Part shown: piece after piece, positions 5,644 through 55,915 of the stretch
How positions within the stretch are numbered: position 1 is the stretch's first letter
Layout: each line of letters opens with the position of its first letter
DNA from: Alloascoidea africana
Lineage: Eukaryota > Ascomycota > Alloascoideomycetes > Alloascoideales > Alloascoideaceae
DNA: 64,000 nt
Assembly: GCA_030581615.1 (NCBI GenBank)
Contig: JAKTTT010000012.1
Location: 1 to 64,000, forward strand
Reading direction: 5' to 3'
Notes under the pieces: model-generated
Seen by the model: only the letters and a program-made list of their open reading frames with translations
What the model was told of the DNA's origin: nothing
The model's database searches: none
Position numbers and translations under genes: made by a program

Positions 5644-5893
5644 CCATAAACAGCGCTGTGATGAAGGGTTATTTGGGGGTGGTGGATGCCGAGAAGCCGA
5701 TGGAGATGGAGATGGAGATTAGGAGGGCCAAAAGATGGTGATTGTGGCCAGCACCAGCAGGCGTAAGGGAGGAGGATTTCGATTCCAATTGCAATTGCAA
5801 TTGCAGCGGGAACGGGCACAAGCACAAGCACAAGCACTAGCACATCTCCCTCTACACGGCTCTTTGTCCATATTTTGTTTCGTTTCGGGAGCC

Positions 5894-6979
5894 ATGAGAC
5901 CCACGACCATCAGACACTTGTTCTTGGGTGCCGCTGCTCTGGTTTTCGTCTGGGTGGTGGTGCTCCTGTTGAACCAGCGGTCCTTTCTGGGCGTTAGCCA
6001 GGTTGGGGGACCCAAACCTCACCACCAGCAGAACCAATATTCGCAAGGACTAGAAAATGCCACGTTTGTGAGCTTTGTACAGAACAAGGATCTCTGGGAC
6101 ATGGCAGAGACTATTGTGTCTGTGGAAGACCGTTTCAACCACAATTTCCACTACGACTGGGTCTTGCTGAGCAACGAAGCGCTAAGCGAGGAGTTTATGA
6201 GGGTTATGAAGGGACTTGTGTCCGGGGGAATCTACTACGGGGCAATTCCCGAGGAGCAATGGAGCTATCCTGAATGGGTGGACGAGGACAAAGCGAAAAA
6301 GGCCAGAGACGGCATGAAAATGCTCTACAAGAACACGGTGGCTGACCAGTTCCGATTCAGGTACGATGCTGGCTTCTTCTGGCGGCATCCAGTGATGATG
6401 GATTATGAGTACTATTGGCGAGTGGAGCCTGGTTCGCGACTGCTCTGTGACGTCCAGTACGATGTGTTCAAGTGGATGAAAGACCAAGGGAAAGAGTTTG
6501 GATTTGCGATTTCGTTCCCTGAGGTGAAAGAGAGCGTTAGCTCATTGTGGGGGCATACTCAGGATTTTCTACAAGAGCACCCAGATAGCGCTGTCTCGGA
6601 GAATCTGCGCGAGTGGGTTTCTCCCGATGGTGAGTTTTTCAACCGGTGTCAGTTCTGGTCGAGCTTTGAGGTTGGTCGACTTGACATGTGGCGAAGCAAG
6701 ACCTATACGGATTTTTTCAACCATTTGGATCACAAGAGTGGGTTTTTCTATGAACGGTGGAGCGATTCATCCGTGAGGTCGCTTGCCGTTTCTCTATTTC
6801 TCCCCCAAAATAGCGTTCATTTCTTTGATGATATTGGGATTTATGATTTGCCATTCACATCGTGTCCCTCAGATATAGACACGCGAATAAAGAATCGATG
6901 TGTCTGTAATCCACAAAAAGATTTCACCCAGAATACAAAGATGAGTTGTACCAACAGGTTTCTAGGATTGGTTTTATAA
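5894..6979 (+). CDS. KRE2/MNT1/KTR-family alpha-1,2-mannosyltransferase (GT15)
   Basis: A type II Golgi glycosyltransferase that adds alpha-1,2-mannose to N- and O-linked chains of secreted and wall proteins, using GDP-mannose. The chosen start (MRPTTIRHLF) is followed at once by a membrane anchor of about 20 hydrophobic residues. The frame is open further upstream to an ATG at 5735, but that extension is Gln/Arg-rich and would displace the anchor. Family blocks are clear: FNHNFHYDWVLLSNE, YYWRVEPGSRLLCD, FNRCQFWSSFEVGRLD, YERWSDSSVRSLAVSLFLP and HFFDDIGIYDLPFTSCP. Length is 361 residues, slightly short for the family (about 390-440), mainly in the stem. There are no introns. Which KTR paralogue it is cannot be told by eye. 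Confidence 0.93.
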   Translation: MRPTTIRHLFLGAAALVFVWVVVLLLNQRSFLGVSQVGGPKPHHQQNQYSQGLENATFVSFVQNKDLWDMAETIVSVEDRFNHNFHYDWVLLSNEALSEEFMRVMKGLVSGGIYYGAIPEEQWSYPEWVDEDKAKKARDGMKMLYKNTVADQFRFRYDAGFFWRHPVMMDYEYYWRVEPGSRLLCDVQYDVFKWMKDQGKEFGFAISFPEVKESVSSLWGHTQDFLQEHPDSAVSENLREWVSPDGEFFNRCQFWSSFEVGRLDMWRSKTYTDFFNHLDHKSGFFYERWSDSSVRSLAVSLFLPQNSVHFFDDIGIYDLPFTSCPSDIDTRIKNRCVCNPQKDFTQNTKMSCTNRFLGLVL

Positions 6980-12090: not shown

Positions 12091-14804
12091 ATGACTCCGA
12101 GGCCTTCCGTCCTGGCCAGTATGTGTCCTTCGCTGCACGCAAATAGTCCCTCTACCCCCCCATCACTGACTGACTAACCAACCCAACCAACCCGTTCTTT
12201 CTTGTTCTAATTTGTACCTCTAGTCGGCTCAACTCCCTCGCTAGCGTTCCTCGCCTGGAGACTCTCGCTCTGTCCAGAATGCTCCGTGGCGGTTCTTTCC
12301 GACTCTGCCGAGCCCATAACCTGGAGGTATTTATCCGTGACTCTTAGCACTATTTGTCCCCCCCCTTTTTTTTTTTTCTTTTTTGTTCCGAAAGGGGAGG
12401 GAGAAAATTCACTTTTAGTACCGCCCGCCCACTAACCAACACAAAACTCTCGAAACATGCAAATAGATCCTCAAAATTTGGAAACTCTCGCTACGTTCCA
12501 AATAAACCATTCTCTTCAATTCGGCACGCTTTTGCCTCAGATGGCCCCCCCAACATTGTGATCGTGAGCCCGGACTCGATCGAGGATCTGACTCGTATCT
12601 GCGAAGCTCTCAAAGCGCCCATCCAGGCCTTTCCCAAGACCATTGTGCTGCTGCTGTCGCCGACCTGTGTCAACCTCTACTCGCTGGTCGCCGCCCTTCT
12701 GCCCGCGACCGGCGTGTTTTCGCTGGTCCTGGACGCCGACGTGAGATCCCTTGCTCCCGACACCTTGTTCCTGAGAGGATCCACCGCGGACTGCTTCCTG
12801 GGGCCCAGCCATCTCGCGGATGCCAACACTGGTGCCAGCACTGGCACCAGTGCTGGTCCACCGCTGCTCCACGACCTCGTCGCCGGCCTCAACACGGTCG
12901 ACGTGCTCTCGCGCTACGTGCCCAGCCCGCGGGACCTGCTCCAGCTCCAGTGGGAGCGCGCGATCCCGGCCATCGCAGTCGACTTCCTGGCGGTGCTGGC
13001 CGAGCAGCCGGACCCGGGCCTGCTGTTCGACCAGCCCGTTCTGCGCCCGCTGGCCACGGGCGTGTTGAACGAGCTGCTGGCCGTCGCCCACAAAATGGGC
13101 TGTGAGTTCCCCAGCTTTGCCCAGTATCAGCTCCACGTTATCGACCTCGTCAAGCTCGCCTACCCCAACGCTTCCCTTTCTTCCTCCTCCCCCATCGCAG
13201 ACCCGGCACTGGCCTATCTGGAGTCAACCCCCGTCTTCCACAACTTTGCCCTCCGCCTCCCGCTCCACGAGGACCTGGTCCTACTGCAACCGCTGCTGCT
13301 CGCCGACGACTGCGGCGTGAAAACCCCATACCTCGAGTTCCTCTTTGCGATGGTCTCCCAGTACTCCAAACTCAACTCGAAAAATCCAAATCCAAATTCA
13401 AACTCGCTGTTTTTTGTCCGCAAAAACCTCTACGACGACACATGGAACGCTCCCGGAGTTCCCGGAGACGAAATCGACCCAATCTCACGGGCCCAGCTGC
13501 AATCCCAGCAGTCCCGTAGACAAGACTTAAACACCAACGGTGGCTACTTTTATCCAAATGGTTCTTTACCACCACCGCCCGTCAAGCGAAACAGCGTACA
13601 TAGCACCCATCATCACCAGCAACACCCCCAGCAGCGCAGTATTAACATGACCGAAGACCCAGCGGCCGACCCGATACCCTACCGAACCTCCAGTGCCGTG
13701 CCCAGCATCGTCCACAGCGTGGCCCCCAGCGTCCCAGACTCCATCATCTATCCGTCCTTGACGCCCGACCAGGCTGCAAATTTTGACATTATGAGCTTCA
13801 CGGGCCGCAGAAACAGAAGACAGTCCCGCGGTGACACGCTGACCCGAAGCTCCCGATCCAAGTCCTACAACGATGTTAAAAAGCCTTTCCAGGCTCTCTC
13901 CCTCGAAATGGACTCCGTGCTGGGAATGACCTCCGAAAGATATGGCGCAGTGGACACGGGCAGAAGAGTCTCGAGAATACAGACTCCAGGAACAGCTTCC
14001 CAGTCTCAGTCTCAGGCTCAGTCTCAGTCTCAGTCCCAGTTCCCCTTCCCACCACAACCGCCAGGAAGCATCCGTCGCTTGTCCCAGGGAACCTCTCAGG
14101 GAACTACTCAGGGAACCGGCATGGGCGGTGCTCCCCGTACAAGCAGATCGAACCCAAGGCTGTATAACGACTTTGCCATTGGTCGTGATACTCTGTCAAT
14201 CCAGAGTGGAATGGGAATGAACATGCTTCCGCCTTCTAGACGAAGTTCGGGCAATCCGCTTGACCAAGGAGGGTCTCCCAGTATCAATGGGTCTTATCGC
14301 CAGCAGCAGAGATACAACCCCCAGATGCAAATGCAAATGCAAATGCCTCTGCCCCAGGCGGAGGGATTCTCATTGCCTGGTAAATCTCTGCCTCCTAACT
14401 CGGAAATGAGCCGAAATGCCAGGTCCGGCTCAGCTCCATCCTCAAGAACGAATTCTACACCAAATTCCACTTTCACGATTAACGAAAATGAAATGAGCGG
14501 TGCAGGTTCTGGTGCAGGTTCAGGTTTAAGCTCGGGACTTTCGGGTCCTGGAAGTGGTCTCTACCTACCACCCAGTAAACCTCTTGATTCTTCATTTACA
14601 GGATTGACAAATGGGAAACATAGTAATGGGTCAAGTACAAATTTATCGCAGCAGCAGCAGCAACAACAACAACATCAGATACAAAACAACAAATCTGAAC
14701 CTGTTGTTACAACTACAAGTTTGACAAAATCGAAATCGATCAAGTCCACAAAGGATAAAAAATCAAGATTTGGTTTTGGAAGGAAAAGGAAAAATCACAA
14801 ATGA
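12091..14804 (+). CDS. SVL3: Svl3/Pam1-family cortical protein (3 exons)
   Basis: Svl3 and Pam1 are fungal cell-cortex proteins of poorly defined function linked to vacuole and endocytic phenotypes; their N-terminus resembles a Rossmann/ketopantoate-reductase fold. Exons by hand: 12091-12118, 12224-12326 and 12467-14804 (2469 bp, 822 residues). Introns are GTATGT...GACTAAC...CTCTAG and GTATTT...CACTAAC...AAATAG. The spliced start reads MTPRPSVLAIGSTPSLAFLA, then WRLS and SSKFGNSRYVPNK, matching the family's dinucleotide-fold opening and its SxxFGNxRxxP block. These segments are absent from the unspliced frame. The C-terminal half (about residue 370 on) is low-complexity: Gln, Ser and Gly runs with RRxS-type sites, ending in a Lys/Arg-rich tail. 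GC-rich at the 5' end, AT-rich at the 3' end. Confidence 0.85.
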
Positions 14805-16493
14805 TTTTATTAAACACAAGAAAGAAATGAAAGATGCGAAATGTGTAGTTATACACACATTCATTCCATTTTTTTTTTTTTTTTAATTCGCTCATCAAAA
14901 CATACAACTTAATCAATCATTGTCATCATTATAATCATTATCATCATAATTGGAGGAGGCTAGCGACTTGTAATTTGTTCTATATATTTTTGTTTTGTTT
15001 GTTTGTTTGTTTGTTTGCAATGGAGTAGCATTTTTTTTTTCTCTCTAATATTTCATACATGTGCGCGGAAACAAAAGAAACAAAAAGAACAGAACAAAAC
15101 AGGAAATGGAGCTGTCCAAGAACAGTACAATACAATACAATACAATACAATATACAGTATGGTGAAGAAGAGCAAAAGCAAAACACAAGAGAAATAAAAT
15201 GAATTGGAATGGAATGGAATAGAATCTGGAGATTCATCATATAATCCAAGAGGAAGAACAGAACAGAACAGAAACCATTGATTGATTGAATGAATGAATG
15301 AATCATTCAAAGAAGGAAAAAGGAAGGAAAAAAAGAAGATTGGATCCAACCGTTTTTTTTTTAGATGAAGCATGATTTGTTTTATTCATGGGGGATTAAA
15401 TTAATAATTTTTATTATTATTATTATTATTATTTTTATATTTTTATTCTCGAACAGCAAAAGAGAACGAGAGGAAACTTTATAAAGTAGAACAAAGTCTG
15501 GTTTACAACAAAATCCAGTGTCTTGCTCTTGCCTCTTATTTTCATTTTTTATTTCATTTGTTTTCTCTTATCTTGTGGTCCCTTCCTTACTGTATCGTTT
15601 GTTTGCCTTCCTTCCCATAATTTTTTATTTCTTTTTCTTTTCTATTTGGTGTGTGTTCTCCTTTCCTTAGCTTTCCTTGATTGTCAAAAAAGTGATATAT
15701 CCTATAAAATAGTACCTCTCGTTCTTTCCCTATTCCATTAATAATTAATTTAATACATCTTTTTCTTCAACACAAAAAAATAAAACAATAGAATTTTCTC
15801 TTGTGGTTAATTGAGACCTTCCAAGATTTTCTATTCAATTGTTTTGGATCCGATGATATGTGACATCAACAACAATCAACATTTCCTGAATCTTTTGATT
15901 TGGTATTCAGATTTCACATGTTTTAGTTTCTAGAATCCCAATACTCAATGTTCAATACCCAATAACCTCCTAAACTTTTCATTATTGTTGATCACCGGAT
16001 CCAGATTCTTGAACCCAATTCCGCTACCAAGGGTGGTAATTAATTAAAAATATACAACAAATAATAGAAAATTGGAAATTGGAATTGGAATTGGAACTGT
16101 ACGGGGGATCAACAATAAATCACCCCGCGCAACCATTCCAACTAATTAAAATATCGTTCACTGGCCGCGGCCGCACGCGCGCGTGGGCGCGAGGCTGTGC
16201 TTGCAGCTTCTCTTGCAGCTGAATTGATGTTCGCTGCATAGAAGAATGCACCGGTGCAGCCATGGAAGCTGGCCCCCCAGACTCTTGACTCTCCTCTTTC
16301 TCCGGCGAAGGGAGGAGGAGGGGATCTTATATATTCCAGTGTCCTCGTCCCCTGTACGCCGAAGAGCCCGTCCAGAAACTATCTCGGTCTGTTTGCTCCT
16401 ATCCTCCTCGTGGTGTCTGTGTTTGTGTTTGTGTCGCTCTCGCTCTGCACTTTTCCATCCTCTATCCGTGCTCTCTGCTCTGTCACCACCACA
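14805..16493. other. gene-free interval with microsatellites
   Basis: Contains the SVL3 3' region and the leader of the pogo-derived gene. Simple repeats: (TTTG)n about 14997-15017, (ACAAT)5 at 15127-15151 and (TTA)n about 15411-15431. Homopolymer T tracts are frequent. A compact GC-rich block (about 16160-16200, with GCGGCCGC and ACGCGCGCG) sits 300 bp before the next start. No protein-coding gene or RNA gene is recognised. Confidence 0.55.
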
Positions 16494-16497
16494 ATGA
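16246..16497 (+). other. 83-codon upstream ORF ending on the next gene's start codon
   Basis: An ATG at 16246 opens a frame that stops at TGA 16495-16497. The start codon of the pogo-derived gene is 16494-16496, so stop and start overlap as ATGA. The encoded peptide is compositionally ordinary for the CT-rich leader and has no recognised domain. It may repress or couple translation of the downstream gene, or may be removed if the leader is spliced. Confidence 0.35.
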
Positions 16498-18503
16498 AGA
16501 CGACCTCTTCATCCATCACGACGAGAGCCAAGATGGGATCAAAACATCTCAACTCCCCACGCGAAATCAACATTCGAAACGCCATGTCGGAGCTTGAAGA
16601 AGGCGTCCATGCAAATATCAAAGATGCGGCCCGTGCCCATGGTATCCCCTATACAACGCTCTACTTCCGTGTAAAGGGGAGAAAATCCAAGGACACCTCG
16701 ATCCAAGTGGTTAGACAAGAAGAATTGTTGACGGCTTCGGAAGAAACTCTCTTGACCCAATACGTCTCGATCCTTTCAAGTGGTGGGTATCCTTGCACTT
16801 TTAGACACATTTTTGAACTCATAAAGGAGATCATCAACAGAAGAGAAGCAAAATCTCAAAGACATGTTCATCATCGTCATCAGCATCATCATCAGCAGCA
16901 GCAGCAACATTTGGTGAAAAAACAGGATATGGGCACTTCCCATAAGACCTCAGTTTCCAATTCAAGCTCCCCGTATTTAGCATCAGCATCAGCTTCTGCC
17001 TCGTCATCCGCTTCGTCATCAGTGTTGACCACATTGTCAGCTTCAACTTCGTCAACCACAACTGTTAGCATGAGCAGCAGCCCCCGGAGCTCGTATTCAA
17101 TGAGTAGCGCGGATGGGAGTCCCACGACTCCAATTTACTCAACCTCAGCGTCCACCTCTGCCCTCGTTTACTCTGCTTCTGGTTCCACAAGTGCACTCAA
17201 CAATACCCTAGGCTCTTATAATTCCTATGGTTCCTATGGTTGTTTACCCAACAATCTCGTCTACAAGAGTAACTATCCGAATCAAACACAACCCCCAAAT
17301 TACACACTATCTGGTAATGGTACAGTTGGTGGTCCACTTGGTGAATTTTACACAACTTCTCAATATCAACTCGTAACCCCAACTCTTCACGATCCAACAA
17401 CAAACATGCTGCATCATGAGTTTCCGGATTACAGGGTCTTGGATATACATGAAAACGGACAAATCATGAATGGATTTGCCTCAGGCAGTCCTGGAATGAT
17501 AGCGGGAACGGGAACGGGAACAGGAACAGGAACAGGAACAGTAGCTGTAACTTCTTGTGGTACCCTTGGAACTGGGCCCACAACAATTGCTCCAAACTCT
17601 GCCCTTCTCAACAAGTCTTTAATATCTTCTCGTTCTGCATCCGTATCTGGTTCTTCATCCATTTCGTCTATTCTCCCCGATTACAAAACTTGTAAAGCAT
17701 GGACTCAACGTTTCATGAAACGACATCCTGAACTACCTTCAAATTTATGTCAACCGGTGGACAAGAACAAGACAAGTAACTATTTGGAAACAACTTTGAA
17801 AAAATGGTTCAAAGGTTATGAGAAACTCGTCACAAAACACAAAATCACAGGTGAAAACGTTTATAATATGGATGAAACCGGATTTGTGCTGGGTGAGACC
17901 CAACGACGATGGTCTATCATTGACAGCTCCATGGTAAAAGTGAACCAGCCACGTGGTGATAACATTTCGGTATTGGAATGCATCTGTGGTGATACAACCA
18001 CTCTTAACCCTTACATTGTTTTCAAAGGCAGATGCATTGATCGTAATTGGTTCCCCTATGATACAGATGAAAGCTGGCAATTCATTTGTAGTGAAAATGG
18101 ATCAACGAACAGCCATATCATGTACGACTGGCTCGTCAACTGCTTCGACCGATTCACAAGACAAAAGGCACATAACAGGGCAAGATTACTCATTTACAAC
18201 GGTCGACCAACCCATCTTACAGGTAAATTTTTGGATCATTGTATCTCTTCAAACATCCATCTTCTCATGATGCCTCTTAGTACCTCTCACATTCTCCAAC
18301 CATTGGATTTATCAATATATGGACCACTCAAATATAAAATGGCCTATGAGATGGATGCTCTGTTGGCAAAAGGGTTGCCCAAAGTTCTCAAACCAGATTG
18401 GATCTCATGTCTTAAAAAGGCAAGAGCGTTCTCCATGACGGTGGAAAATATCGATAGCGGGTTCAAAAAAGCCGGTTTGATACCGTTTGCCCCATTCTAC
18501 TGA
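16494..18503 (+). CDS. domesticated pogo/Fot1-type transposase (psq HTH + CENP-B HTH + DDE-1 domain)
   Basis: The 669-residue uninterrupted frame has three transposase parts. A psq-type HTH lies at residues 21-65 (SPREINIRNAM...ARAHGIPYTTLYFRVKGR). A CENP-B/Tc5-type HTH begins at 77-120 (LLTASEETLLTQYVSILSSGGYP). Residues about 121-392 are a His/Gln/Ser/Thr/Gly-rich insert. The HTH then resumes (YKTCKAWTQRFMKRHPEL) and leads into a DDE-1 core. First acidic motif: NMDETGF (about 459). Third: LQPLDLSIYGPLK (about 602). The second, normally DGHxSH, reads YNGRPTHL (about 568), so the second catalytic Asp is Asn. The frame is intact despite this, which suggests a host gene under selection, like CENP-B, Abp1 or the Pdc2 family. 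The start is the first in-frame ATG; no terminal inverted repeats were noticed. Likely a DNA-binding regulator; its targets are unknown. Confidence 0.85.
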   Translation: MKTTSSSITTRAKMGSKHLNSPREINIRNAMSELEEGVHANIKDAARAHGIPYTTLYFRVKGRKSKDTSIQVVRQEELLTASEETLLTQYVSILSSGGYPCTFRHIFELIKEIINRREAKSQRHVHHRHQHHHQQQQQHLVKKQDMGTSHKTSVSNSSSPYLASASASASSSASSSVLTTLSASTSSTTTVSMSSSPRSSYSMSSADGSPTTPIYSTSASTSALVYSASGSTSALNNTLGSYNSYGSYGCLPNNLVYKSNYPNQTQPPNYTLSGNGTVGGPLGEFYTTSQYQLVTPTLHDPTTNMLHHEFPDYRVLDIHENGQIMNGFASGSPGMIAGTGTGTGTGTGTVAVTSCGTLGTGPTTIAPNSALLNKSLISSRSASVSGSSSISSILPDYKTCKAWTQRFMKRHPELPSNLCQPVDKNKTSNYLETTLKKWFKGYEKLVTKHKITGENVYNMDETGFVLGETQRRWSIIDSSMVKVNQPRGDNISVLECICGDTTTLNPYIVFKGRCIDRNWFPYDTDESWQFICSENGSTNSHIMYDWLVNCFDRFTRQKAHNRARLLIYNGRPTHLTGKFLDHCISSNIHLLMMPLSTSHILQPLDLSIYGPLKYKMAYEMDALLAKGLPKVLKPDWISCLKKARAFSMTVENIDSGFKKAGLIPFAPFY

Positions 18504-21332
18504 TCCAAAGTTTACCTTTCTATTTTCTATTTTCTATTTTATTTTATTTTCTTCTTTCATGTCTATGCTTTTTTATGATGATTCTATTTTACTTTCTATT
18601 CTGCATTTATGTTTTTTAAAATTTTTTATGTTGAACGATTGTGAAGCTTTCCTTGTCTTTCATTGATGGTACATATATATATATATTGTGAATAGGGAGA
18701 TGATTGTAGTTTATGAATTGTACAAGTCTGACCTAAACTGATTCATTTGCATACCCAGGTTTTCCTCATTAACGGAGAGGGGGGGGGGATACACTAGAGG
18801 AACAAAGTTTCTGTCGAGAGCGGCTGTAAAGAGTAACCGGGGTTTCCTAATCCGGGGATGCATGGACGACCGCCAGCCCTGTCGCGTGTTGTCCGGAAGA
18901 ATAAGAATAAGAATATGAATATTAGCCATAGCCCCGAGATCAAGATCAGAAATCACAACGACAGAAGATCGGGAAGCAGAATTACGAAATGCGAAGATCT
19001 GGTGTAAACAGACGCACAGAAGCCTCTCATTCTTCTAGAAGGCTGTGTATTGCATGCATGGAACTTTCGCTGCGTCGATTTGCGCCTTTGGCCTGCATCG
19101 CATGCATCCATGCGTCATGCACATAGCCATCCTGTCTGGAAATTGATTGGCCAAACTTTCCCAACGCGGCAATAATGTCTATTCAATATAATATAATATC
19201 ACAGCAGGGCTATGTTCCAATTCATCCAGTATCTGTTTATCTTTCTACCCACCCTGGCTTTGACAGCTACAGGGGGCAGGCAAATAATTAGAATAGAAGT
19301 TGAATTTGAATTGAATTGAATTAGAAAACAACAAAGTAAAGATCTTCGAAAGCTTGTTTCCATTTCCAAAGTTCATATCCTTACAATACACAATTTACCG
19401 GTCATTATTTTGTCCACTTTGCCCCGTTTTCAGATTTTCCCAATTTTTTTCTTCTTTGGTAAAACTGATCGAAAACAGTTAGACTGTTCAGTGGGCTTAG
19501 AATACCTCTTAACTTCTCTATTGTCTTGTATGTTTCAAGGTTTTTTACTACCAGCCCCGCCCCCCCTTATTTCTACTAAATATAGGTTTATCTTTAATCC
19601 GACTAGAAATCTTGTCAAGTTCGCAATAACACTCGTTGGTGTGATCAACACTGACAAACAGGATTTTTGAGCAGTAGTCAGTGAGTCAAGGAACGTTGAT
19701 ATTCGGATATACGCGCAAGCCATTCTGGTATATATCCTTCTGATGACCTGTCCTCATCATGATTGCTGTTATGGTCTGCTAATCAACAAATTTATTGGGA
19801 ATCATTCTTTAACTAGGGAACTCCAAAAGTATGGATCACTTTTTGCGATATGTTGTTTTAATGGATTTTTTCCCTCTACTATAATCAACTATTTGCAAAA
19901 TATTTAAAGCTTTTAATAGTTGCACTTTTGGTTCATTCGTAACAGAGTTGATACAGAAAGCAAAAAGATATTTTCTTTTTGAAGCGTCGTCTTTTTATTA
20001 CTATCTACGGATCTCTAGAGGAAAGTGAACTGCTGATTCCCAAAATGTCCTATTTGTTCTACTATTTTGAAAACACTCAATTATACATTTTTTGAAAGGC
20101 TTTGTGGATGAAATATCAGTAATAACAAAGTTAGAAGCGTTTTGTGTAATGTTTTTGAAGCTGAAAAGAACCATCAATTCAAACAAGAAAATGTTAGCAA
20201 ACCAAAACAATCAATAAAACTGGAAAATTATAAGGTCCCGTCATCCATGTATACTTTTGCAGCATGTCCAGTATCAAGTTTTCTTTTAAAGATTAATCCA
20301 CTTGTGCCATCCTGTCCAGACATGTATACAATTGTTCAAACGACTCTCTCAAGCGGACGGAATAAAATTACTTCCCAGATTAGCCATTATATTTATTTTT
20401 TATTTTTTCTGAAACAAGACAATGTAATTGTTCTCGTTAATACCCTTGTGTTCAATCAATTTAATTATACCAAAGATCTTTATCTAATGACATATTCTAA
20501 TCATAAAACGATAGTTGTGTCTCAAACTGTGTTCTTTCGCATACAAAGAAAAAAAAAGATCTCTACTGCGTCGTTTTCTTTGCCTGAAATAAAACTGATG
20601 TCTTGTTCTATTATAATTGAGTGATTGTGGAGATCGGAAAAATGATAATTCGGTCTTTGTCAATCTTGGTCAACTTATCGACAGGAACAAGCCTCTTATT
20701 AAAAAGTTCCATTCTACCCGACTTTAACAACTTCTGTGGTCAACTACACCTTCCATATCATCAAATTCCAATCAAGAGTCTCTAAATCAAACAAATAAAA
20801 TGATCTTTCTTTCGCTGTCCTAGACAAACTTGGATACTGGTGGTCCAAATCTTGTGCCATTCCCAGTTCGTGCGAAAACTTAACAATAGATTAAGAATTT
20901 GATTAGTCTCTCACAATCAGTGGCTTTTTACTGTAGCGTTTTGAGACACTACAGACATGATGAGGAAAAATATTAATGAACAAAACTCATACATTGATCT
21001 ATGTAGCCAACTATTTTTTAAAACAATCAGAATCAGAATTGTATTTTGCAAGCTATCTCTGTCAACAAATTTGCCCATATAAACCACAACATGGTCAACA
21101 CGGAAAAGCAAGCTAAATCTGAAAGGGTTACCAAAGAACTGAATTTCCAACTAAAAAAATCAAAAATATAAAAATAAAAACCACAATCAATCATTATTCA
21201 CTAACTTATAGCTTGATGTAAACACAGTCTAGATAGCACAATGTATAATACAAACAAAAAATCCATCCATGCTGACTGAATAGTTCCAAAAGAAAATCAC
21301 CCTATCTTTGTCCCTTTCCATACCAAAAACAG
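18504..21332. other. 2.8-kb interval without a recognised gene
   Basis: The left part holds the 3' region of the pogo-derived gene (AT repeats near 18671-18685). A G-run (about 18780-18788) and a short GC-rich patch (18830-18900) follow. The rest is AT-rich. Short frames at 19410, 20142 (160 codons) and 20917 resemble nothing known and have Phe/Ile/Lys/Ser-heavy composition typical of chance frames. A decayed gene cannot be excluded. It ends at the 3' end of the RCK2-like kinase. Confidence 0.5.
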
Positions 21333-23117
21333 TTATTCTGCCGCCGCCGCAACGCCCTTCTTTTTCCGTCTTTCTAACAGTGTGGCACCTTCCAATTTCA
21401 GATCAAAAACTCGAGCTTCAAGGTTCTCCTTGCCATCATGGTCTCCATGTCTGGAATCTCCGTCATCGTCATACTCATTAAGTTCATTTAAAACAGAGAG
21501 ATTCCCATTGCCCTTTCGAAGAGCACCTTCCTCCTCCATTCTATGAACAGCATTGGAAACATCGAATATTTCTCGTAAAGTGACAACCGCTGGAGAGTTG
21601 TAACCATTAGGCGATTGGGCATACGTTACGAGAGTCTTTGCTTGATTAATCGATTGCTTGTAATCATCACTGAGCTCTTTCGTAACGCCTTGATCTTGTT
21701 TCATCCACTTGTGATTCAGCATCTCATCTATAGTATACCGCTTTTCCGGATCAACCGTAAGCAAATGAGATACCAAATCTTTTGCGTCCTTACTAATGTC
21801 GTCCCACCAAGGACTAAGGAAAGTGTACTGTCCTCGCGCCACTTTTTCAGTAAGGGTCTCTATGTTTTCATCATAAAACGGAGGAAATCCACAGAGAACC
21901 GTGTACAGGACACAACCCAATGCCCACATATCCACACTTTTCGTATACCGTTCATCTCTAACGATTTCAGGCGCAGTGTAACCGACAGTTCCACAAGGAG
22001 TCTTCGTTTTACTATCCCAAACCTGTTTGGATAATCCAAAGTCTGCAAGTTTGACAACACCGACACCTCCAGACCCAACACCAGGAAGAAATTCCCCTTC
22101 GTCGGCCTTTTGAGAATGATCGTCACCTTTCCTAAACGCCTGCTTCTTTGAAGGAATGAACGGGATAGGGAAAAACAGAAGATTTTCAGGCTTGATATCA
22201 CGGTGAACTATTCCTGCTTCTTCATGGAGATATCGAACAGCGTTTGCAACCTGTGTAATGACGTGACGAGAAAGATCTTCTGAGAAATACGTCAAGCGTA
22301 CAATCTCTTGAAACAACTCGCCCCCAGGAACAAGTTCCTGTATGATATAATAGTACTGTTCGGCTTCCATGAAGGCCAAAAATGAGACGATATTTTTGTG
22401 TCTGAGTTGTCTCATTATGGCTACCTCTTTCAGAATGCTCGCTTTCTACACATCACCATTATTAGTAACAGAGGGTACATTACCAAGCAATACCGAAAAT
22501 CATACCTGAACAGCATCCATTTCATACTTCTTGATCACTTTTATCGCCACGGATTCACCGGTTTTCGTGTCCTTCGCACGATAAACGATTGAGAATGCTC
22601 CCCTACACACCACATGTTAGTAAAAGTTCCCTCCCCCAGTGGTGCAACCAACCACGAACACAAAAACCCCAAACCAAATACTCACTCCCCCATTTGCTCT
22701 AACAATACGTATCGATCGAGGCCAGGATATGAAGGTAGTTTAGACCTCTGCACGCCTTCCTCTTGCACTATTTGATGAGCGACTTCGTTGTACTTTTCTT
22801 TTGGTGCATTTTTCTCCGTTATAAGCACCTGGCTGATCGACTCCTTCGCAGTGTCCGCGGACGTGGCACTAGAGCTTGCATTCACACCCATAACCGGAAC
22901 TGTATTTAAAACTATAGACGGGCTGTCATAGGCCTGGCGTCCATGCCGAATGAAGTTCTTCAGATTCTGCAAACATTCAGTTGTTTAGTACTTGGAGCTG
23001 TCATACACAGTGTGGGCTCGAAAGTTCAACGGCATCCCGGGAAGCCAGAAAACACTATTGCAAAATGGACTGAAACCCCAGTTTCAAAAAGTGCAGACTC
23101 ACCTCGAGAACCACCAT
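21333..23117 (-). CDS. RCK2: Rck2/Srk1-like MAPK-activated protein kinase (4 exons)
   Basis: A CAMK-group Ser/Thr kinase of the Rck1/Rck2/Srk1 type, which acts below the Hog1/Sty1 stress MAPK and controls translation and the cell cycle under stress. Exons by hand: 23117-23103 (15 bp, MVVLE), 22966-22686, 22602-22506 and 22445-21333; 1506 bp, 501 residues. Donors are GTGAGT, GTGAGT and GTATGA; branch sites are TACTAAAC, ACTAAC and TACTAAT. The pre-kinase segment (NLKNFIRHGR...YNEVAHQIVQEE...LPSYPGLDRYVLLEQMG) is typical of this family. The spliced glycine loop is GEGAFSIVYRAKD. The catalytic loop HRDIKPENLL (D214), DFGLSK and the TPCGTVGYTAPE activation segment are intact. The C-terminus is Lys-rich (RRKKKG). 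It lies 249 bp downstream of RFA2 on the same strand. Confidence 0.92.
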
Positions 23118-24645: not shown

Positions 24646-25995
24646 ATTTCTTTTTTTTCCCCGTTTATATTACTGTGTCTAAAGTATTTACCATGCGAAC
24701 CCATACTCCTCTTACTCGTGCGAGAGCGGCACACTCAAACTTTTCAAGTTCGGGTGGATTCTTCTCGATTGAAACCGAAACATTCTGGAAGCGACTAGGA
24801 GGAGAGCTTTGATCAATCAGCAAACCGGCAAGCGCCTGGCGTTTGCGTCATAGCCGGGAACTCAGAGCTTATGGCTCACTCTGAGAACTCGTGCTACTTT
24901 GACTGCGAACCGTATACCTCAGCCTGTAGAACTCTACAAGCTTTGGGCTGTTCCCCTTTTTTAGCATTTCTGTTGTGGAGTGGAACTCAGCCACTCCGCT
25001 TGTGATTCTCTCCTCGTCCCACAGGGGGCACTCGACGACCTCATGCTCGAAGCGAGGTGCAAGATGGCCGCATCGGACATTTCTTTACATGATGATCCAT
25101 CAAACTCGTACCACTCAACAACTGAGCCAAGGCCAAGAGGATGGGTTTGGGTTCCTTGAAGTACTTTTGTAATAGCAAATCAGATTTCTGTGTCGGAATT
25201 TTCACTTTGTGGTCCTTGTTCGCTACATATCGTGGGTTTAACGTTATGGAGTCAAATTCTTGTTCCCAGAGTTCATTTGCGAATTCTCTACACAATTTCT
25301 TCCATGTGTTTTTCAACTGCGCTTGGGCCAGGTCTTTTTCTAAGTTCAAGCCTTCTTTGGTTAAGAATACCACTATCGACTTGATCTCGTCGGAGTTGTT
25401 GGTGCCTTCGGGAATGATTTTTTGTATGATGTGAGAGAGATGTTGGTCCTCGATTTCTCGAGAGATAGCGCCTGTTGATGAATTCCCTGGAGGTATGTTT
25501 AGCAGGAAATGGCCTTTTGTGGTAAGATTGGTTTCAATCAGTTTTATGTGGATAACTTGTGGTGAATGACATTGCTGAATGCCCCTACGATATCGATCAG
25601 AAGTAGACTTGATGCTTGATGTTGTATTCTATCAGGTTGGTTAAGGCATCGCTGGTGCTGAAATCCCTTCGGCCTCTTTGTAGATTTTGTTTGTTATTGC
25701 TTTTTCCAGAACTTTGCTAAGGCATTTTTTTTTTTTTTATTAGGGATATTGGTCGGTAGTTGGCTATCTTTGAATGATCTCGGTTGCCGCCCTTTGGGAT
25801 TACCGCGATGTTTGCTTCTTTCCATCGTGCTGGATGTCTGCCAAATTTGATGGCGCAGGTGAAGATGTCCAAAAGTTATTCTTTGAAGTTATTCTTTGAA
25901 CGCTTTTGACTCCCAAAGGATTTGAATTGCTCGGTTGCCTATACCGTCGGGGCCAGGAGCCATTTTTGGATGAAGTTTTCTTATCAATTCTCAAG
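24646..25995 (-). mobile_element. 5'-truncated, decayed LINE copy (3' half of ORF2)
   Basis: A non-LTR retrotransposon fragment read on the minus strand. Its 3' end, at about 24646-24660, is an A-rich tail (T-rich on the plus strand) after a terminal segment shared with the copies at 28240-28541 and 31880-32345. Upstream lie the C-terminal Cys/His region near 25050-25100, the NTWKKL/FANELW segment near 25270-25330, and pieces of reverse transcriptase (CAIKFGRHPARWKE, YRPISLIN-like and FSTSDALTNLIE) between about 25620 and 25990. The frame is broken several times, and the catalytic FVDD part is missing through an internal deletion near 25560-25640. Its 5' end abuts, head to head, the copy that starts near 25996. 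The clade looks Tad/I-like rather than L1-like; this is inference. Confidence 0.8.
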
Positions 25996-28545
25996 CAATC
26001 GATCAAGCGACCCCAAGAAAAAAGATATGCTTCTTTGCCAAACGATGGTGGTTTGAAGAAGTGAGCCAAGCATATCAGGAATACAAATACACATGCAAAT
26101 GGGACAGCGAAAATCGCGACAAAGCAAGGGAAAAGTTCCTAGATAAGTGCAAAACAGCAAAACGGGAATGCTGGGAAAGGTATCTAGCCACACTGGACCA
26201 TACCAACGTTTGGCATGCACTGAAATTGACGGAACCAAAACAGATTTCGACGCTCCCCGGTAAACTAGACGACCTGGCTGAAGAATGCGTCACTACCTTC
26301 TTCCCACCGTCAAGAGCTACTCAATTTCAAACAAATACCCACACTAACAACCCGCCAATACTCGAAGAAGGGGATATAGGAGAATTGATCAAGAAACTCC
26401 AACCGAAAAAGGCCTCTGGCCCTGACGGCATAAGTAATCGAACGGTCCAAATCCTCTGGGAGTCGAAAGTTTTCAAGGATCAACTATTGGACATCTTCAA
26501 CTGCGCCATAAAATTTGGCAGACATCCAGCACGATGGAAAGAAGTGATTATTGCGGCAATCTCGAAGGGCGGCAAAAGAGACCATTTAAAGCTAATCAAC
26601 AACAGGCCAATATCCCTAATAAATTGCCTTAGCAAAGTTTTGGAAAGAGCAATCACAAATAAAATCTACAAAAAGGCCGAACTATGGCTACCGTGCTACC
26701 AATTCGGCGGGAGACGAGGCTACAGCACTAGTGATGCGCTAACCAACCTGATAGAAAGATTACAAAACCAAACATCAAGTTTACTTTTGATAGATTCAAC
26801 AATGTCACCCACCACAAGCTTGGCACAAAACTTCTCAAACTAAGAATTGACCCACACATAGTCAATTGGCGCGCGAGCTTCCTACATCACCGGAAAACCA
26901 AGTTTAAAATCAACAACTAGATGTGCGACACGTCACACAATATCAATTGTGGAATACCGCGAGGATCACCGATATCTCCTCTGTTATTCCTAATTTACAG
27001 CGGGGATCTTTACGAAAAGATAACCAATATAGGCCTCCAAATCACAGGCTTTGTCGATGATATCACACTGTGCTCAACAGGGCCGGTTCATTTCAGAGAA
27101 AGGAAAATGCAAGAGGCGCTGGACGTGTGCGAAAGTTGGGCCAGGAAGAATGAAACGAGTTTCGACTACGGCCACAAATGTCAACTACTGTCAACAAAGA
27201 TACGGAAAAGCGAAAGACCAATGGAGCTTATCTTACCCAATGGTACTATCAAACGTGAAGACGAAGTGGTTTAACTGTTAGGGCTATGGATCGGCCCAAA
27301 GTTAACCTTCAACCATCACTTAACCAAGACAATCCCTCGAGTGAAGAGCACGATTTCGAGGGTCAAGCAGATATCAAAGATAAGCAAAGGAGTCAACGGG
27401 AAAGCCGTACTCCAAATGTATCATGCTTGTATCTTACTCAAACTTTTCTATGGGTCTGAAAACCATAGCACGAGAAAACGCATAGTCCGCGATAAGAAAA
27501 TCTCCACCCTACAAAACGAATGCTTGACAATGGCACTTGGTATCCTTAAATCCACAAATGTCCCAGTCCTTACTCTGGAAAGTGGCTGTTTTCCTATCCA
27601 CATAAAACTGATCGAATCCAATCTAAACAAAAAAGGCCGTTTTCTGCTGAACGTACCACCAGGGAACCCATCCAAAGGCACTATCTCTCAAGAAATCGAA
27701 GACCAGTCCAAATTAGACCAACATCTCTCTAACGTTATACAAAAAATCATTCCCGGAGGTACCAACAACTCCGACGAGATAAAATCGAGAGTGGTACTCT
27801 TAACCAGAGAAAGATTGAATTTAGAAAGAGACCCGACCCCAGAGCAAATGAAAAACACATGGAAGAAAGTGTTCAGAGAATTCGCAAACGAACTATGGGA
27901 AAAGAACTTGATTCCATAGCATTAAGTCCACAATATGTGGCGAACAAGGACCATAACGTGAAAATCCCGACCCAAAAATCCGACCTGCTTTGCAGAAGTA
28001 CTTCAAGGAACCCAAACCCATTCTCTCGGCCTTGGCTCAGTTGTTGAGTGGTACGAGTGTGATAGACCATCAGGTAAAGAAATACCTCTCCCCGGAGGAC
28101 ATAACTTGTCGCTGCTGCAAACTAGTGCCTCGCTTCGACCATGAGGTCATGGAGTGCCCCTTGTGAAAGGAGGAGAGAATCAACAGCGGGTTGGCAGAGT
28201 TCCAGTCCACGAAAGACATGTTAAGAAAGGAGAACATCCCAAAGCTTGTAGATTTCTATAGGCTGAGGTATGCGGTGAGCAGTCAAAGTAGCACGAGCAC
28301 TCAGAGTGAGCCATAAGTACTGAGTACCCAGATACGAAGCAAACGCCAGGCACTTGCCGGTTTGCTGATTGATCAAACCCTCTCCCTAGTCGCTTCCAGG
28401 ATGTCTCGGTTTCAATCGAGAAGAATCCACCCGAGCTTGAAAAGTTTGAGTGTGCCGCTCTCGCACGAATAAGAGGAATATGGGTTCGCATGGTAAATAC
28501 TTTAGACAAAGTAATATAAACGGGGGAAAAAAAAGAAAAGAAAAC
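25996..28545 (+). mobile_element. 5'-truncated LINE copy with most of the reverse transcriptase
   Basis: This plus-strand copy begins just after the endonuclease domain (ATPRKK and AKRWWFEEVSQAYQEY). It keeps the RT blocks KKASGPDGISNRTVQILWE, RPISLINCLSKVLERA, GRRGYSTSDALTNL, GIPRGSPISPLLFLIY and the catalytic GFVDDITL (about 27045-27070). The later NTWKKVFREFANELWE and a CRCCK...FDHEVMEC Cys/His region follow. The 3' end is the shared terminal segment with an A-rich tail near 28531-28545. The reading frame is damaged: a shift near 26785 at the first catalytic-Asp block, a stop at 26918-26920, another at 27272-27274, and further breaks after 27916. It cannot move by itself. The endonuclease is absent. 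Confidence 0.85.
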
Positions 28546-42628: not shown

Positions 42629-44985
42629 ATGGAAAACGCTTACTTCTCAATGACGCCGCCTCCATCTGCTAGGCAGAACTCGACATCAATCTTCACCCAT
42701 ACCAATGCTGGATCCCATATCCCATCAGCATTGACTCCAATCTTCGACAAAGACCCACTGCTATACCCAAATCCCACCTTCAACTTGGACTTTTCAAACA
42801 TTAGTTCGCCATCGCCTCTTCCCACCTCTACGTCCCATACCCATACATATCGACCAAAACAAAAGTCTGGACGGCCAGTGCCCTCAGACGTGTGCGGCTC
42901 TTTAGAACCGTCTTCCCAGTCCTCGAAATTGCCAATGATTGTTGACATTTCAATATCCCCGGACGACGGCCGCAGGATTTTCCAGGTTTATCAAGACCAA
43001 TCTCCACAACATCAGGAACGCGATCACTCCTGTACTCCATCCTCGCTGCCACGGGCCATTCTCACTCCCAAATCCGCGTCTGTCCCTCGAAGATCGTGTT
43101 CTCTTATGGACGGCACGGCTACTCCTTGCCTGCCCAGAAAGCGTAGTTTGGACTCGCCTTTAACGCCACTGGGACTAAAACAGCGCCGCACACTATCCAG
43201 CCCGAACGTGTTTCCCTCCACGCCCTTGTACACCTCTCATGCCAAGAAGCTCGACAGCAATGACGAACAGATTTGGGGGAAGGACGTAGAGGCTGCTTTT
43301 TTGGAAGGTATGTTACGCATTTTGATACTTTTGGTGTCATTGCCACCCCCTTAATTACTGACTCGACGCACACTGCTTTTTATGCTTTAGCGCTTCGTAT
43401 CATCCCTAAAAATGGTCTCAAGAAAATTCACATCAACGGAAAGGTCTGTGGTAGGAACGAGCACATCTCGGACTATATTTACTTGAAAACTGGCAAAACC
43501 AGATCGAGAAAGCAAGTTTCCAGCCATATCCAGGTGCTGAAAAACACAGCGAAAGACACAACTCTTTTAAAGTTAATTGCCGAAGGTGCAGAACCAGATG
43601 CTTACAAAACTTCATCGTTTGGCAGTATGCTTTTGGACAAAACCAACCGTGACGGGGAGTCCTCAAAAGACAGTGGTTCAATTGCATCCCCAGAGCCCAG
43701 CGCTTTCAACGATGCTTTTCTATGGAACCCTAGTTCTGTGGCTTCTAGCCCGGAAACGGTTGGAGTTGAGAATAAGGTTAAGGTGTCTGTGGCTGACTTT
43801 GCAATTAAGAGCACTGGTCCAGTCGAGCATGTCTACACCAGATTCCAAAAAGATAGCATAACTCCAACGCCTTTGGAAATAAAGCCAAGTCTACAGCTTT
43901 TGCAAAGATTTCCCAACATTGGTGATTGCTTTCAACAACGTGCTCCATTTGCTTCAATTGGTGGTCAGTACGCTCTAGCAAATATTCGACTCAACCGCAA
44001 ATTGCAAACCAGTAGTCGATCTAGATCTACCAGTTCAGGAAACTATAGATCCGCACTGTCCCTAAATTTAGAGCTGCCTGATGAAGCTCAAGGGTACAAA
44101 TTGTCCTGTTTGACGACTATTTCTACTCTTGGACGTGAAGTTTTGAAGCTTTCTGAAGATCTTGTGTGCGACGACAATGGGAAAGTTACGATTCAATTTA
44201 CCACGGAGTTTTGGGCTGCGTTCCTTAGCAGTATGGAAGCAGGAGGTCCCTCATCTACTCTATCGCCTTCAGCCTCAAGCACAAAGAAGTTCACAGAACG
44301 TGAAATCAATGTTGCGATTGGTGGTCTCACAGTGTCACAAGCGATATATGGGCAATCTCCTAAGGGCTTGGAAAAATACGTATTGGGACTGTTGTTATGG
44401 GAATTCGTTTATGCGAAAGATGAATTGAAAGATCCTGTGACAATCATACGTCCTATCAGTGACAATTCGATCCGTCAAATCGCAAGATTTTCTCCTTTTA
44501 TGGTGAACAGGCAAGATAAGCTGACAAAGACGGCTCAAGAGTTGTTTTCTTTGCCTAAAAGCACTCCTTTCCGCCATTCTGTTGCAGAAATTGACGCCTT
44601 TAAATTTGATTCTGAGTTGGCAAGGCTCAGCAACTTGTCTCATCAAGATTATCGGGAAGACTCTGTTGATACAACAACACTCAAGTCTTCAATTAAGAGT
44701 CCTTCAGATCTCATTGATCTTGAACCTGCCATCAACTATGAGAGCATTTTAGGTTTCAGTTACGATATTGCGGATACGGGAAGTTCTGCAACCAATCCAA
44801 ATTTGTCTTCTTTAAATTGTTTCCTCGCAACTCCAGCTGTTGAAGTTGACGAGTACATCAATGCAACAATGAGCTCGTGTATGGGCATGACCAACACCGA
44901 TACCACTTTTGGTTTTGATCCTTCAGAGGACGACCCATTGTTTGGTGTCAAAACTGGAGATTTCAATCCTGCGTTCGATCGTTAG
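42629..44985 (+). CDS. TEC1: TEA/ATTS-domain transcription factor, Tec1/AbaA-like (2 exons)
   Basis: A TEA-domain DNA-binding regulator; yeast Tec1 works with Ste12 in filamentous growth, and AbaA controls conidiation in moulds. Exons 42629-43307 and 43391-44985 (GTATGT, ACTGAC branch, ATGCTTTAG); 2274 bp, 757 residues. The TEA domain spans about residues 213-285 and is interrupted by the intron: [15 protein letters not shown] joins [18 protein letters not shown], then [32 protein letters not shown], which holds the recognition helix. The roughly 210-residue Ser/Pro-rich N-terminal extension and long C-terminus make it much larger than S. cerevisiae Tec1 (486). Being the only TEA gene type in yeasts, it is probably the orthologue. 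Confidence 0.88.
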
Positions 44986-55109: not shown

Positions 55110-55915
55110 CAATAGTTGGGCGTGTTTGCCCATAGTGTAAAAGAACGCATTATTACCATAAAGCGTGAACAGTGCACTTTCTTTAGAGGAGTGGCTTCGG
55201 CTATCCCTTGTTGCAGAAAACTTGTGAATTGATTTGTGATCACCTCGAGGTGACCTTTGTTGCGAATTAGGATTTGCTTCCATTGCCGTAGGTGATTTAG
55301 GAGGCAGACAAGGTCCATTTCCTCGTGGTTAGGAACCATGATATTGTCTGGTGAGAAGTGTTTCTTTTCCGTTTCCAGCGACAGAGCTAGATGATCTGAA
55401 GGTGATGTGGTATAGTCTGGGGGACCCCTGAAGTGGTTATCGAGATTCTTGGACACTAGTAACGCATCCTGAAACGTTTCCCCTGTTGTTGGCTGCTTTG
55501 TTAAAGATGTTCTTGTGGACTAGATCAGCTGTTTTTAAGATCCTGTCGATTTGGTCCGTTCTGGTGGGGTCGTTCCAAGGCTTGGAACACCATTTTGGGT
55601 GCCAGGTATTTATGTCACCTGCGATGCATCCCATGAAAGACGCGGTGTTTTCGAGGAATTGTAGGAGCACTGCGAGTGAATTGGAAGCATTCTCCGGCGT
55701 CGAGCCTGATATGAAGGAGATTTCTTTGCTGTCTTTTTTGATATGAGCTGCCGCGAGGTCGCGGTTGTTTATATCGATTTTGTGGATGGACCAACCTTGT
55801 CTTTGAATCATTTTGTTTATATATAGACGATCTGTTTTGGAGGGTTCAGTATTTTTGTTCTGATTCAATTCTTGTAAATTCCTGATGTGTTGCCGGTCCA
55901 TATTGTAATGGTATG
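55110..55915 (-). mobile_element. LINE fragment: endonuclease domain, minus strand
   Basis: Codes on the minus strand for an apurinic-type LINE endonuclease: QGWSIHKIDINNRDLAAAHI, FISGSTPENASNSLAVLLQFLENTASFMGCIAGDINTWHPKWCSK and DPTRTDQIDRILKTADLVHKN. It continues, after a frame break near 55465, into the SDHLALSLE motif at the end of the domain and a linker (ATPLKKVH). The reverse transcriptase is absent. It probably belongs to the same family as the 24.6-28.5 kb LINE: the GDINTWHPKW endonuclease ends just where that copy begins (ATPRKK). The 5' end faces another copy head to head. Confidence 0.78.

What the first reader, a model, noticed from the sequence alone, without database searches (positions are those of the whole stretch)
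16494..18503. Domesticated pogo/Fot1 transposase with the second catalytic Asp replaced by Asn
The frame is intact over 669 codons and keeps psq HTH, CENP-B HTH and DDE-1 folds. The first (NMDETGF) and third (LQPLD) motifs are normal, but the expected DGHxSH reads NGRPTHL. Loss of one catalytic residue without decay of the rest is the classical mark of host co-option (CENP-B, Abp1/Cbh, Pdc2/Rag3). The position in a yeast, between SVL3 and a gene-free stretch, suggests a centromere- or promoter-binding protein not obviously equivalent to those.
Basis: partly seen in the sequence, partly recalled or inferred. Interest (0 to 1): 0.75.

Follow-up and report, generated by a model that had tools for sequence, protein, structure and literature searches.

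The report
Domesticated pogo transposase, now DNA-binding protein
A gene that once let a jumping piece of DNA cut and move itself seems to have been kept by this yeast-like genome as three resident copies that probably still grip DNA but have lost a key residue for cutting it, so it most likely now works as a gene regulator.

Summary
Confirmed: window 16494-18503 (+) is an intact 669-codon frame with a pogo-type DDE_1 domain (E 7.9e-25); its triad reads D460-N569-D605. Two full-length paralogues (C12:109836-111590, C1:740815-742725) share the Asp-to-Asn change and the 35-residue spacing. The window and C12 copies lie in an old segmental duplication with an SVL3-like gene, a kinase gene and a TEA-domain gene, so that duplication was not a transposition. 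Synonymous sites are saturated, yet dN is 0.22; 28 of 28 residues of the first HTH are identical in the three although 23 of 28 codons differ. No convincing TIRs, no near-identical copies found, flanks essentially single-copy. New here: a 180-275-residue low-complexity insert splits the second (Tc5/CENP-B-type) HTH; leaving it out recovers a weak Pfam match. Features point to a Fot-type source; the genome separately holds three Pdc2-like genes of Lemi-like architecture. Most likely a sequence-specific transcription regulator. DNA binding, function and conservation in sister species are untested; the organism is unidentified.

The parts
16494..18503 (+). Domesticated Fot/pogo-type transposase gene, 669 codons (or from Met14 at 16533)
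   Evidence: open frame; DDE_1; paralogue alignment
16542..16685 (+). First DNA-binding domain (psq-type HTH), residues 17-64; G37-K64 (16602-16685) identical in all three paralogues
   Evidence: (20.2 bits, cut-off 20.4), for paralogues, (28 of 28 residues invariant, 23 of 28 codons differing)
16728..16847 (+). Second (Tc5/CENP-B-type) HTH, first part, residues 79-118
   Evidence: full-length Tc5 match only after leaving out the insert
16848..17672 (+). Low-complexity insert (275 residues, 59 Ser and 34 Thr) that splits the second HTH; candidate effector region
   Evidence: paralogue inserts of 260 and 180 residues with the limits I set
17427..17474 (+). Short stretch inside the insert, residues 312-327 (DYRVLDIHENGQIMNG), similar in the C1 paralogue; only its first part recurs in the C12 paralogue
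17673..17768 (+). Second HTH, second part, residues 394-425
   Evidence: in the intact C1 paralogue the equivalent part alone matches Tc5 weakly (12.1 bits)
17871..17873 (+). First catalytic Asp, D460 (GAT), kept
17970..18464 (+). DDE_1 domain
18198..18200 (+). Second catalytic position, Asp replaced by Asn, N569 (AAC)
18306..18308 (+). Third catalytic Asp, D605 (GAT), kept; 35 residues lie between N569 and D605
12348..14801 (+). SVL3-like neighbour (name recalled), open frame; co-duplicated with the transposase gene
   Evidence: two loci found in the genome, each upstream of a paralogue in the same orientation
21336..22984 (-). Protein kinase neighbour (CaM-kinase label recalled) of the duplicated block; frames 21336-22445 (Pkinase) and 22685-22984
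   Evidence: best-matching paralogue (75%) is in the other block
42629..44982 (+). TEA-domain gene of the duplicated block; frames 42629-43351 (no Pfam match) and 43264-44982 (TEA)

Best explanation
A Fot-type pogo transposase was captured as a host gene in an ancestor of this fungus and later duplicated into three resident paralogues. The second catalytic Asp became Asn in their common ancestor, so the protein should no longer cut DNA (inferred from the chemistry of DDE enzymes; not assayed). What selection kept most tightly is DNA recognition: the psq HTH should bind one fixed short DNA sequence, probably derived from the old transposon ends, and much the same sequence in all three paralogues. 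The dead RNase-H-like core is kept as a scaffold, probably for dimerising or bridging two sites. The long disordered insert in the loop of the second HTH acts as the effector (probably activation) region. Shown: intact frames, shared Asn, purifying selection, block duplication of two of the three copies, an insert at the place of the second HTH, single-copy flanks of the window gene. Inferred: Fot origin (by features, without reference sequences), DNA target, dimerisation, activation, loss of catalysis.
For: Domestication: two diverged intact paralogues and no near-identical copy (54 of 54 candidates scored); flanks of the window gene match nothing else except one 40-base stretch; no convincing TIRs around the window gene (25 longest of 71 pairs seen) or its paralogues (21 and 5 pairs). 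All three read D-N-D. Window and C12 copies share a duplicated block: the SVL3-like gene has 2 loci in all at E up to 0.001; the TEA genes of the two blocks are 46% identical and are the two best of 6 TEA loci by profile score; the kinase's best paralogue is the block one, 75% against 56-61% for the next three (111 of 197 candidates scored). Selection: NG86 dN 0.224 for the block pair with dS saturated, against kinase 0.163, TEA 0.25, SVL3-like 0.416, on well-aligned codons only; codon model omega 0.017, lnL -3309.6 against -3635.5 with omega fixed at 1. The most conserved stretch is the first HTH: 28 of 28 residues, 23 of 28 codons changed. Insert: 22 of 275 columns invariant, Ser/Thr-rich; the C12 copy's insert holds an acidic, aromatic stretch. 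A Fot-like family with a D-D-D core in the same genome looks different: it was found only as pieces.
Against: No binding, expression or phenotype data. No relative outside this genome was found (those collections are viral and prokaryotic). dS is saturated, so omega is only roughly known, and kappa was fixed at 2 in the null model. The insert is poorly conserved and of net charge +3, -4 and -9 in the three; activation is a guess from composition, made without a trained predictor or a control. HTH_Tnp_Tc5 after leaving out the insert is weak (22.1, 22.2, 14.2 bits; cut-off 22.2) and I ran no control with other joins. The upstream 900 bases of the three genes share no 8- to 10-base word beyond chance, so no common regulatory site is seen. 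The C1 copy shares only a mannosyltransferase neighbour, from a family of 12 loci, so its origin by block duplication is not shown. The single-sequence structure model is unusable (mean pLDDT 34.9).
Confidence: 0.6

Rival explanations
1. Genome-defence factor: the protein binds the ends of transposons or LTRs in this genome and silences them, as fission-yeast Cbp1/Cbh proteins do.
For: Same superfamily; PMC10085805 (section 31 read) says that S. pombe Cbp1 family proteins bind LTRs and repress retrotransposons. Pieces of a Fot-like element exist in this genome.
Against: HTH_ABP1_N was not found in this clade. Nothing here links its HTH to any element end; I did not look for such sites in the relics.
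Confidence: 0.15
2. Centromere-binding protein analogous to CENP-B.
For: CENP-B-type second HTH remnant and the general precedent of CENP-B.
Against: No CENP-B_N or CENP-B dimerisation match at E up to 10 in the three proteins. Tandem repeats in window 12000-33000 are 9 short rows of at most 41 bases, no satellite array. The surroundings are ordinary gene-bearing DNA. Centromere positions are unknown, so the test is weak.
Confidence: 0.1
3. Residual enzyme: the D-N-D site still supports nicking or strand transfer, or Asn569, which is followed by Gly (a context known to favour deamidation, from general knowledge), turns to Asp in part of the molecules.
For: The first and third Asp and the Asn-Gly pair are kept in all three paralogues.
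Against: Asn for a metal-binding Asp normally abolishes DDE catalysis (established knowledge). The vertebrate host gene POGK is listed with the same DN35D triad (PMC7386202 table). The Gly is probably only inherited from the ancestral DG motif.
Confidence: 0.04
4. A recently immobilised or decaying transposon copy with no host function.
For: Transposon relics of related type exist in the genome.
Against: Three intact copies at saturated dS with dN 0.22-0.31, shared Asn, block duplication.
Confidence: 0.02

Closest known systems
Fot1/Fot-like pogo transposons of fungi
   Same: HTH_psq and/or HTH_Tnp_Tc5, DDE_1 and 35-residue spacing, the features given for Fot/Fot-like in PMC7386202 (passages)
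   Different: Second Asp is Asn, second HTH split by a long insert, protein ends 4 residues after the GLIPF end of the core, no convincing TIRs, not repeated
POGK (vertebrate, Passer-derived)
   Same: Same degenerate triad DN35D and host-gene status (PMC7386202 Table 1 passage)
   Different: POGK is listed with BrkDBD and a KRAB domain; independent origin
Cbp1/Abp1, Cbh1, Cbh2, Cbt1-6 of fission yeasts and CBT7 of Dipodascaceae
   Same: Domesticated pogo transposases in ascomycete yeasts; small paralogue families in fission yeasts; degenerate triads in several (PMC10085805 section 31)
   Different: That paper derives them from Lemi transposons, and found CBT7 single-copy in G. candidum. The window clade has HTH_psq and no HTH_ABP1_N match. 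No Cbt7 sequence was available for a direct comparison
Pdc2/Rag3 (resemblance recalled, no reference sequence was available)
   Same: pogo-derived yeast protein with low-complexity regions
   Different: This genome holds three separate Pdc2-like genes (C29, C92, C57) with Tc5 HTHs and HTH_ABP1_N similarity, over the cut-off in one; core identity to the window protein is 16.5-17.4%
CENP-B
   Same: pogo superfamily, two HTHs, degenerate DDE domain
   Different: No CENP-B_N and no CENP-B dimerisation match

Membership tests
pogo superfamily, Fot/Fot-like | DDE_1 domain | tested here: met
   E 7.9e-25, profile 7-177 of 177
pogo superfamily, Fot/Fot-like | HTH_psq | tested here: inconclusive
   20.2 bits vs cut-off 20.4 in the window protein; 20.9 and 21.0 in the paralogues
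pogo superfamily, Fot/Fot-like | HTH_Tnp_Tc5 | tested here: inconclusive
   absent in the intact window protein; with the insert left out 22.1, 22.2 and 14.2 bits in the three paralogues against a cut-off of 22.2
pogo superfamily, Fot/Fot-like | 35 residues between the last two triad positions | tested here: met
   35 in 3 of 3 paralogues; PMC7386202 gives the same spacing for Passer
pogo superfamily, Fot/Fot-like | groups with Fot reference transposases in a tree | not tested
   no reference sequences were fetched; the tree uses this genome only
active transposon | TIRs with target-site duplication and several near-identical copies | tested here: not met
domesticated transposase gene | stable locus, no mobility | tested here: met
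   window and C12 copies in a co-duplicated block; not shown for the C1 copy
domesticated transposase gene | purifying selection on the protein | tested here: met
domesticated transposase gene | conservation at the same locus in sister species | not testable with these tools
   no fungal genome collection at hand; scans found no relative
Cbp1/Cbt family (Lemi-derived) | HTH_ABP1_N | tested here: not met
   not in window protein or paralogues; genome hits C57 (over cut-off), C92 and C29 (below)
CENP-B | CENP-B_N and dimerisation domain | tested here: not met
   no match at E up to 10 in any of the three proteins
Pdc2/Rag3 orthologue | orthology to Pdc2 | tested here: inconclusive
   no reference sequence; three other genes look more like Pdc2 (likeness to Pdc2 itself recalled)

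The most novel reading that the evidence does not exclude
A Fot-derived regulator family in which the second transposase HTH has become a split, switchable DNA-binding module: a disordered effector segment sits in its loop, so modification or partner binding of the insert would directly gate DNA binding, while three paralogues with an identical first HTH compete for the same sites with different inserts.
Probability: 0.2. Interest if true: 0.68.

Novelty: new variant of a known kind. Interest (0 to 1): 0.5.

Why it matters
Repeated taming of pogo transposases into DNA-binding host proteins is a classic case of new genes from mobile DNA, and PMC10085805 (section 31) states that the fungal cases have not had the scrutiny of the vertebrate ones. 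This genome has 13 long open DDE_1 frames of several lineages beside 7 fragments or broken pieces, of 20 hits over the Pfam cut-off, and a three-gene family whose members share one degenerate active site and one invariant DNA-binding stretch. That makes it a testable system for how transposase paralogues divide regulatory work, and for how a DNA-binding domain tolerates a large insert in its loop.

Tried and rejected
Chance TIRs: one search reports 71 inverted pairs in window 14800-21400, of which I saw the 25 longest; one (16046-16077 with 18517-18548, 32 nt, 75%) brackets the ORF but is AT-rich and low-complexity, one of many such pairs, so rejected. Around the C1 copy 24-nt arms (88%) rich in A/T runs bracket the ORF, around the C12 copy only short ones do; also rejected.

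Is the insert an unspliced intron? Rejected: open in frame in all three paralogues, with short conserved stretches inside it.

Structure: AlphaFold on the single window protein gave mean pLDDT 34.9 and was not used for a fold search. I did not hand in the paralogue alignment because the tool's list of accepted loci does not name loci from the genome search. PDB sequence searches: the window protein hit only a His-rich thaumatin chain (E 0.02, low complexity); the profile of seven relatives hit nothing at E up to 10.

Shared promoter words among the paralogues: none beyond chance. Two AGGGG sites (stress-element-like, motif recalled) and a TATATA lie upstream of the window gene; not pursued.

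Mannosyltransferase (KTR-like) genes lie within 10 kb of three pogo-derived genes (window, C1, C17). A crude Poisson count with 9 pogo-derived genes and 12 loci gives 0.09 expected and P about 1.3e-4, but it is post hoc and the C17 gene is only eighth in the list, the query itself included, so it merely hints at older shared ancestry.

Whether the S/T-D-K clade (C17, C14, C6, C1:404k) and the window clade stem from one domestication: not resolved (support 86.2/63).

L041 (C8), under the Pfam cut-off, looks like a chance hit and was dropped from the tree; relic pieces L035-L038 and L040 were also left out of it. tRNA scan and composition profile added nothing; a search for papers on genome duplication was for context only.

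Full report
Observation. The ORF 16494-18503 (+) is intact over 669 codons. Pfam gives DDE_1 at E 7.9e-25 and HTH_psq marginally below cut-off. Alignment to other pogo-type genes of the same genome puts Asp460, Asn569 and Asp605 at the three catalytic positions. N569 is encoded by AAC (18198-18200).

A three-gene family. A whole-genome protein search (25 matching pieces, 54 of 54 candidates scored) found two close full-length relatives: C1 (54% identity, 637 aa) and C12:109836-111590 (67% and 70% in its two matched pieces, 584 aa). All three have Asn at the second position, Asp at the first and third, and 35 residues between the last two. A tree of 15 pogo-type sequences from this genome groups them at 100/100 (SH-aLRT/UFBoot), and joins the window copy with the C12 copy at 91.9/97.

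Two of them duplicated with host genes. Upstream of the C12 copy lies a homologue of the window's SVL3-like gene in the same orientation; a search found only these two loci (8 of 8 candidates scored). In the same 16-kb stretch are the best match of the window's kinase (75% identity; next three 56-61%, 111 of 197 candidates scored) and a TEA-domain gene 46% identical to the window's; of 6 TEA loci these two score best against the TEA profile, though the other four were not compared with them directly. Gene order differs somewhat, and in the C12 block a further gene lies between the SVL3-like gene and the transposase gene, as in an old segmental duplication. The C1 copy shares only a mannosyltransferase neighbour, of a family with 12 loci by my grouping of 17 pieces, so its history is less clear.

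Selection. Synonymous sites are saturated for all three pairs; dN (NG86) is 0.224, 0.233 and 0.312. For the block pair, dN of the transposase gene (0.224, 392 codons) lies between the kinase (0.163, 329) and TEA (0.25, 338), and below the SVL3-like gene (0.416, 126), on well-aligned codons only. A codon model on 374 codons of the trio gives omega 0.017 and a log-likelihood 326 units better than omega fixed at 1 (kappa also fixed, at 2, in the null). By region, invariant positions are: psq HTH 38 of 48, second HTH 21 of 40 and 22 of 32, DDE core 122 of 214, insert 22 of 275. Residues 37-64 are identical in all three while 23 of 28 codons differ. Selection is therefore tightest on DNA recognition.

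Split HTH. In the S/T-D-K relatives the second HTH is contiguous and matches HTH_Tnp_Tc5: over the Pfam cut-off in 2 of 4 (C17, C14), below it in the other 2 (C6, C1:404k). Of the intact window protein and its two paralogues, scanned at E up to 10, only the C1 paralogue gives a Tc5 match, weak (E 0.19) and confined to the part after the insert (profile 50-62 of 66). When I left out the insert, HTH_Tnp_Tc5 matched across the join in all three at 22.1, 22.2 and 14.2 bits against a cut-off of 22.2; the cut points were set by hand and no control joins were run. The insert thus seems to expand a loop of that domain. It is Ser/Thr-rich and holds a short stretch similar among the paralogues (DYRxxD). 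The three proteins end 4 residues after the GLIPF end of the core, whereas the S/T-D-K proteins, C31 and C29:85.7k carry 55-435 further residues there.

Context in this genome. A DDE_1 search gave 21 hits, 20 over cut-off. By my reading, 13 of those 20 are long open frames (430 codons or more) and 7 are fragments or broken. Triads of the 13: D-N-D in three; S/T-D-K in four; D-S-E in one (C31); D-D-D in one (C29:85.7k); the three Pdc2-like genes and C2 keep two Asp, with the third position not reliably aligned. A Fot-like family with a D-D-D core was found only as pieces (16 matching pieces, the query's own place included), some at contig ends (C16, C138), a useful contrast; such counts are lower bounds. 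The Pdc2-like genes have Tc5 domains and HTH_ABP1_N similarity, over the cut-off in one of the three, the combination that PMC7386202 gives for Lemi. So at least two source families seem to have been tamed in one genome.

Literature. PMC7386202 (passages): Fot/Fot-like transposases have HTH_psq and/or HTH_Tnp_Tc5 and almost all are DD35D; POGK is DN35D. PMC10085805 (section 31 read in full; passages): Cbp1 family and CBT7 are Lemi-derived; [quoted passage not shown] PMC10799480 (abstract and passages): a fungal screen with more than 1000 DDE_1 candidates; its tables were not seen and could include orthologues. PMC5014426 (passages): Fotyl, a Fot1-type transposon, in Yarrowia. In the listings of searches of this open-licence library (12-25 papers shown of 35-159 found) I saw none that describes a Fot-derived host gene with this architecture; subscription papers were not searched.

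Mechanism. Most likely a DNA-binding regulator with a dead transposase core and an internal disordered effector region. Function remains inferred.

Noticed in passing
C17:117739-119085 (L004), C14:244498-245685 (L006), C6:134841-136220 (L009), C1:404817-406511 (L013): A second family of four intact pogo-derived genes with a differently lost triad (S/T-D-K, with residues missing after the second Asp); omega 0.048 in a codon model.
   Followed up: partly
C29:113788 (L021), C92:36953 (L022), C57:55189 (L023): Three Pdc2-like genes (name recalled) with similarity to the Cbp1-type HTH_ABP1_N, over the Pfam cut-off in one of the three, hinting that Pdc2-like and Cbp1 proteins share a Lemi-type source.
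   Followed up: partly
C16:430928-432127, C10:175003-176278, C9:300303-301257 and others: Fragmented Fot-like transposon family, some pieces at contig ends; one core still reads D-D-D.
   Followed up: partly
window 24872-25628 (-), 27275-28163 (+), 55437-55901 (-): Fragments that look like non-LTR retrotransposon coding sequence (label recalled; no Pfam match for the two frames tested); a relative of the first two lies at C1:731458, about 9 kb from the C1 paralogue.
   Followed up: no
window 5735-6976; C1:734638-736008; C17:121428-122774: Mannosyltransferase genes within 10 kb of three pogo-derived genes, more often than a crude, post hoc chance estimate.
   Followed up: partly
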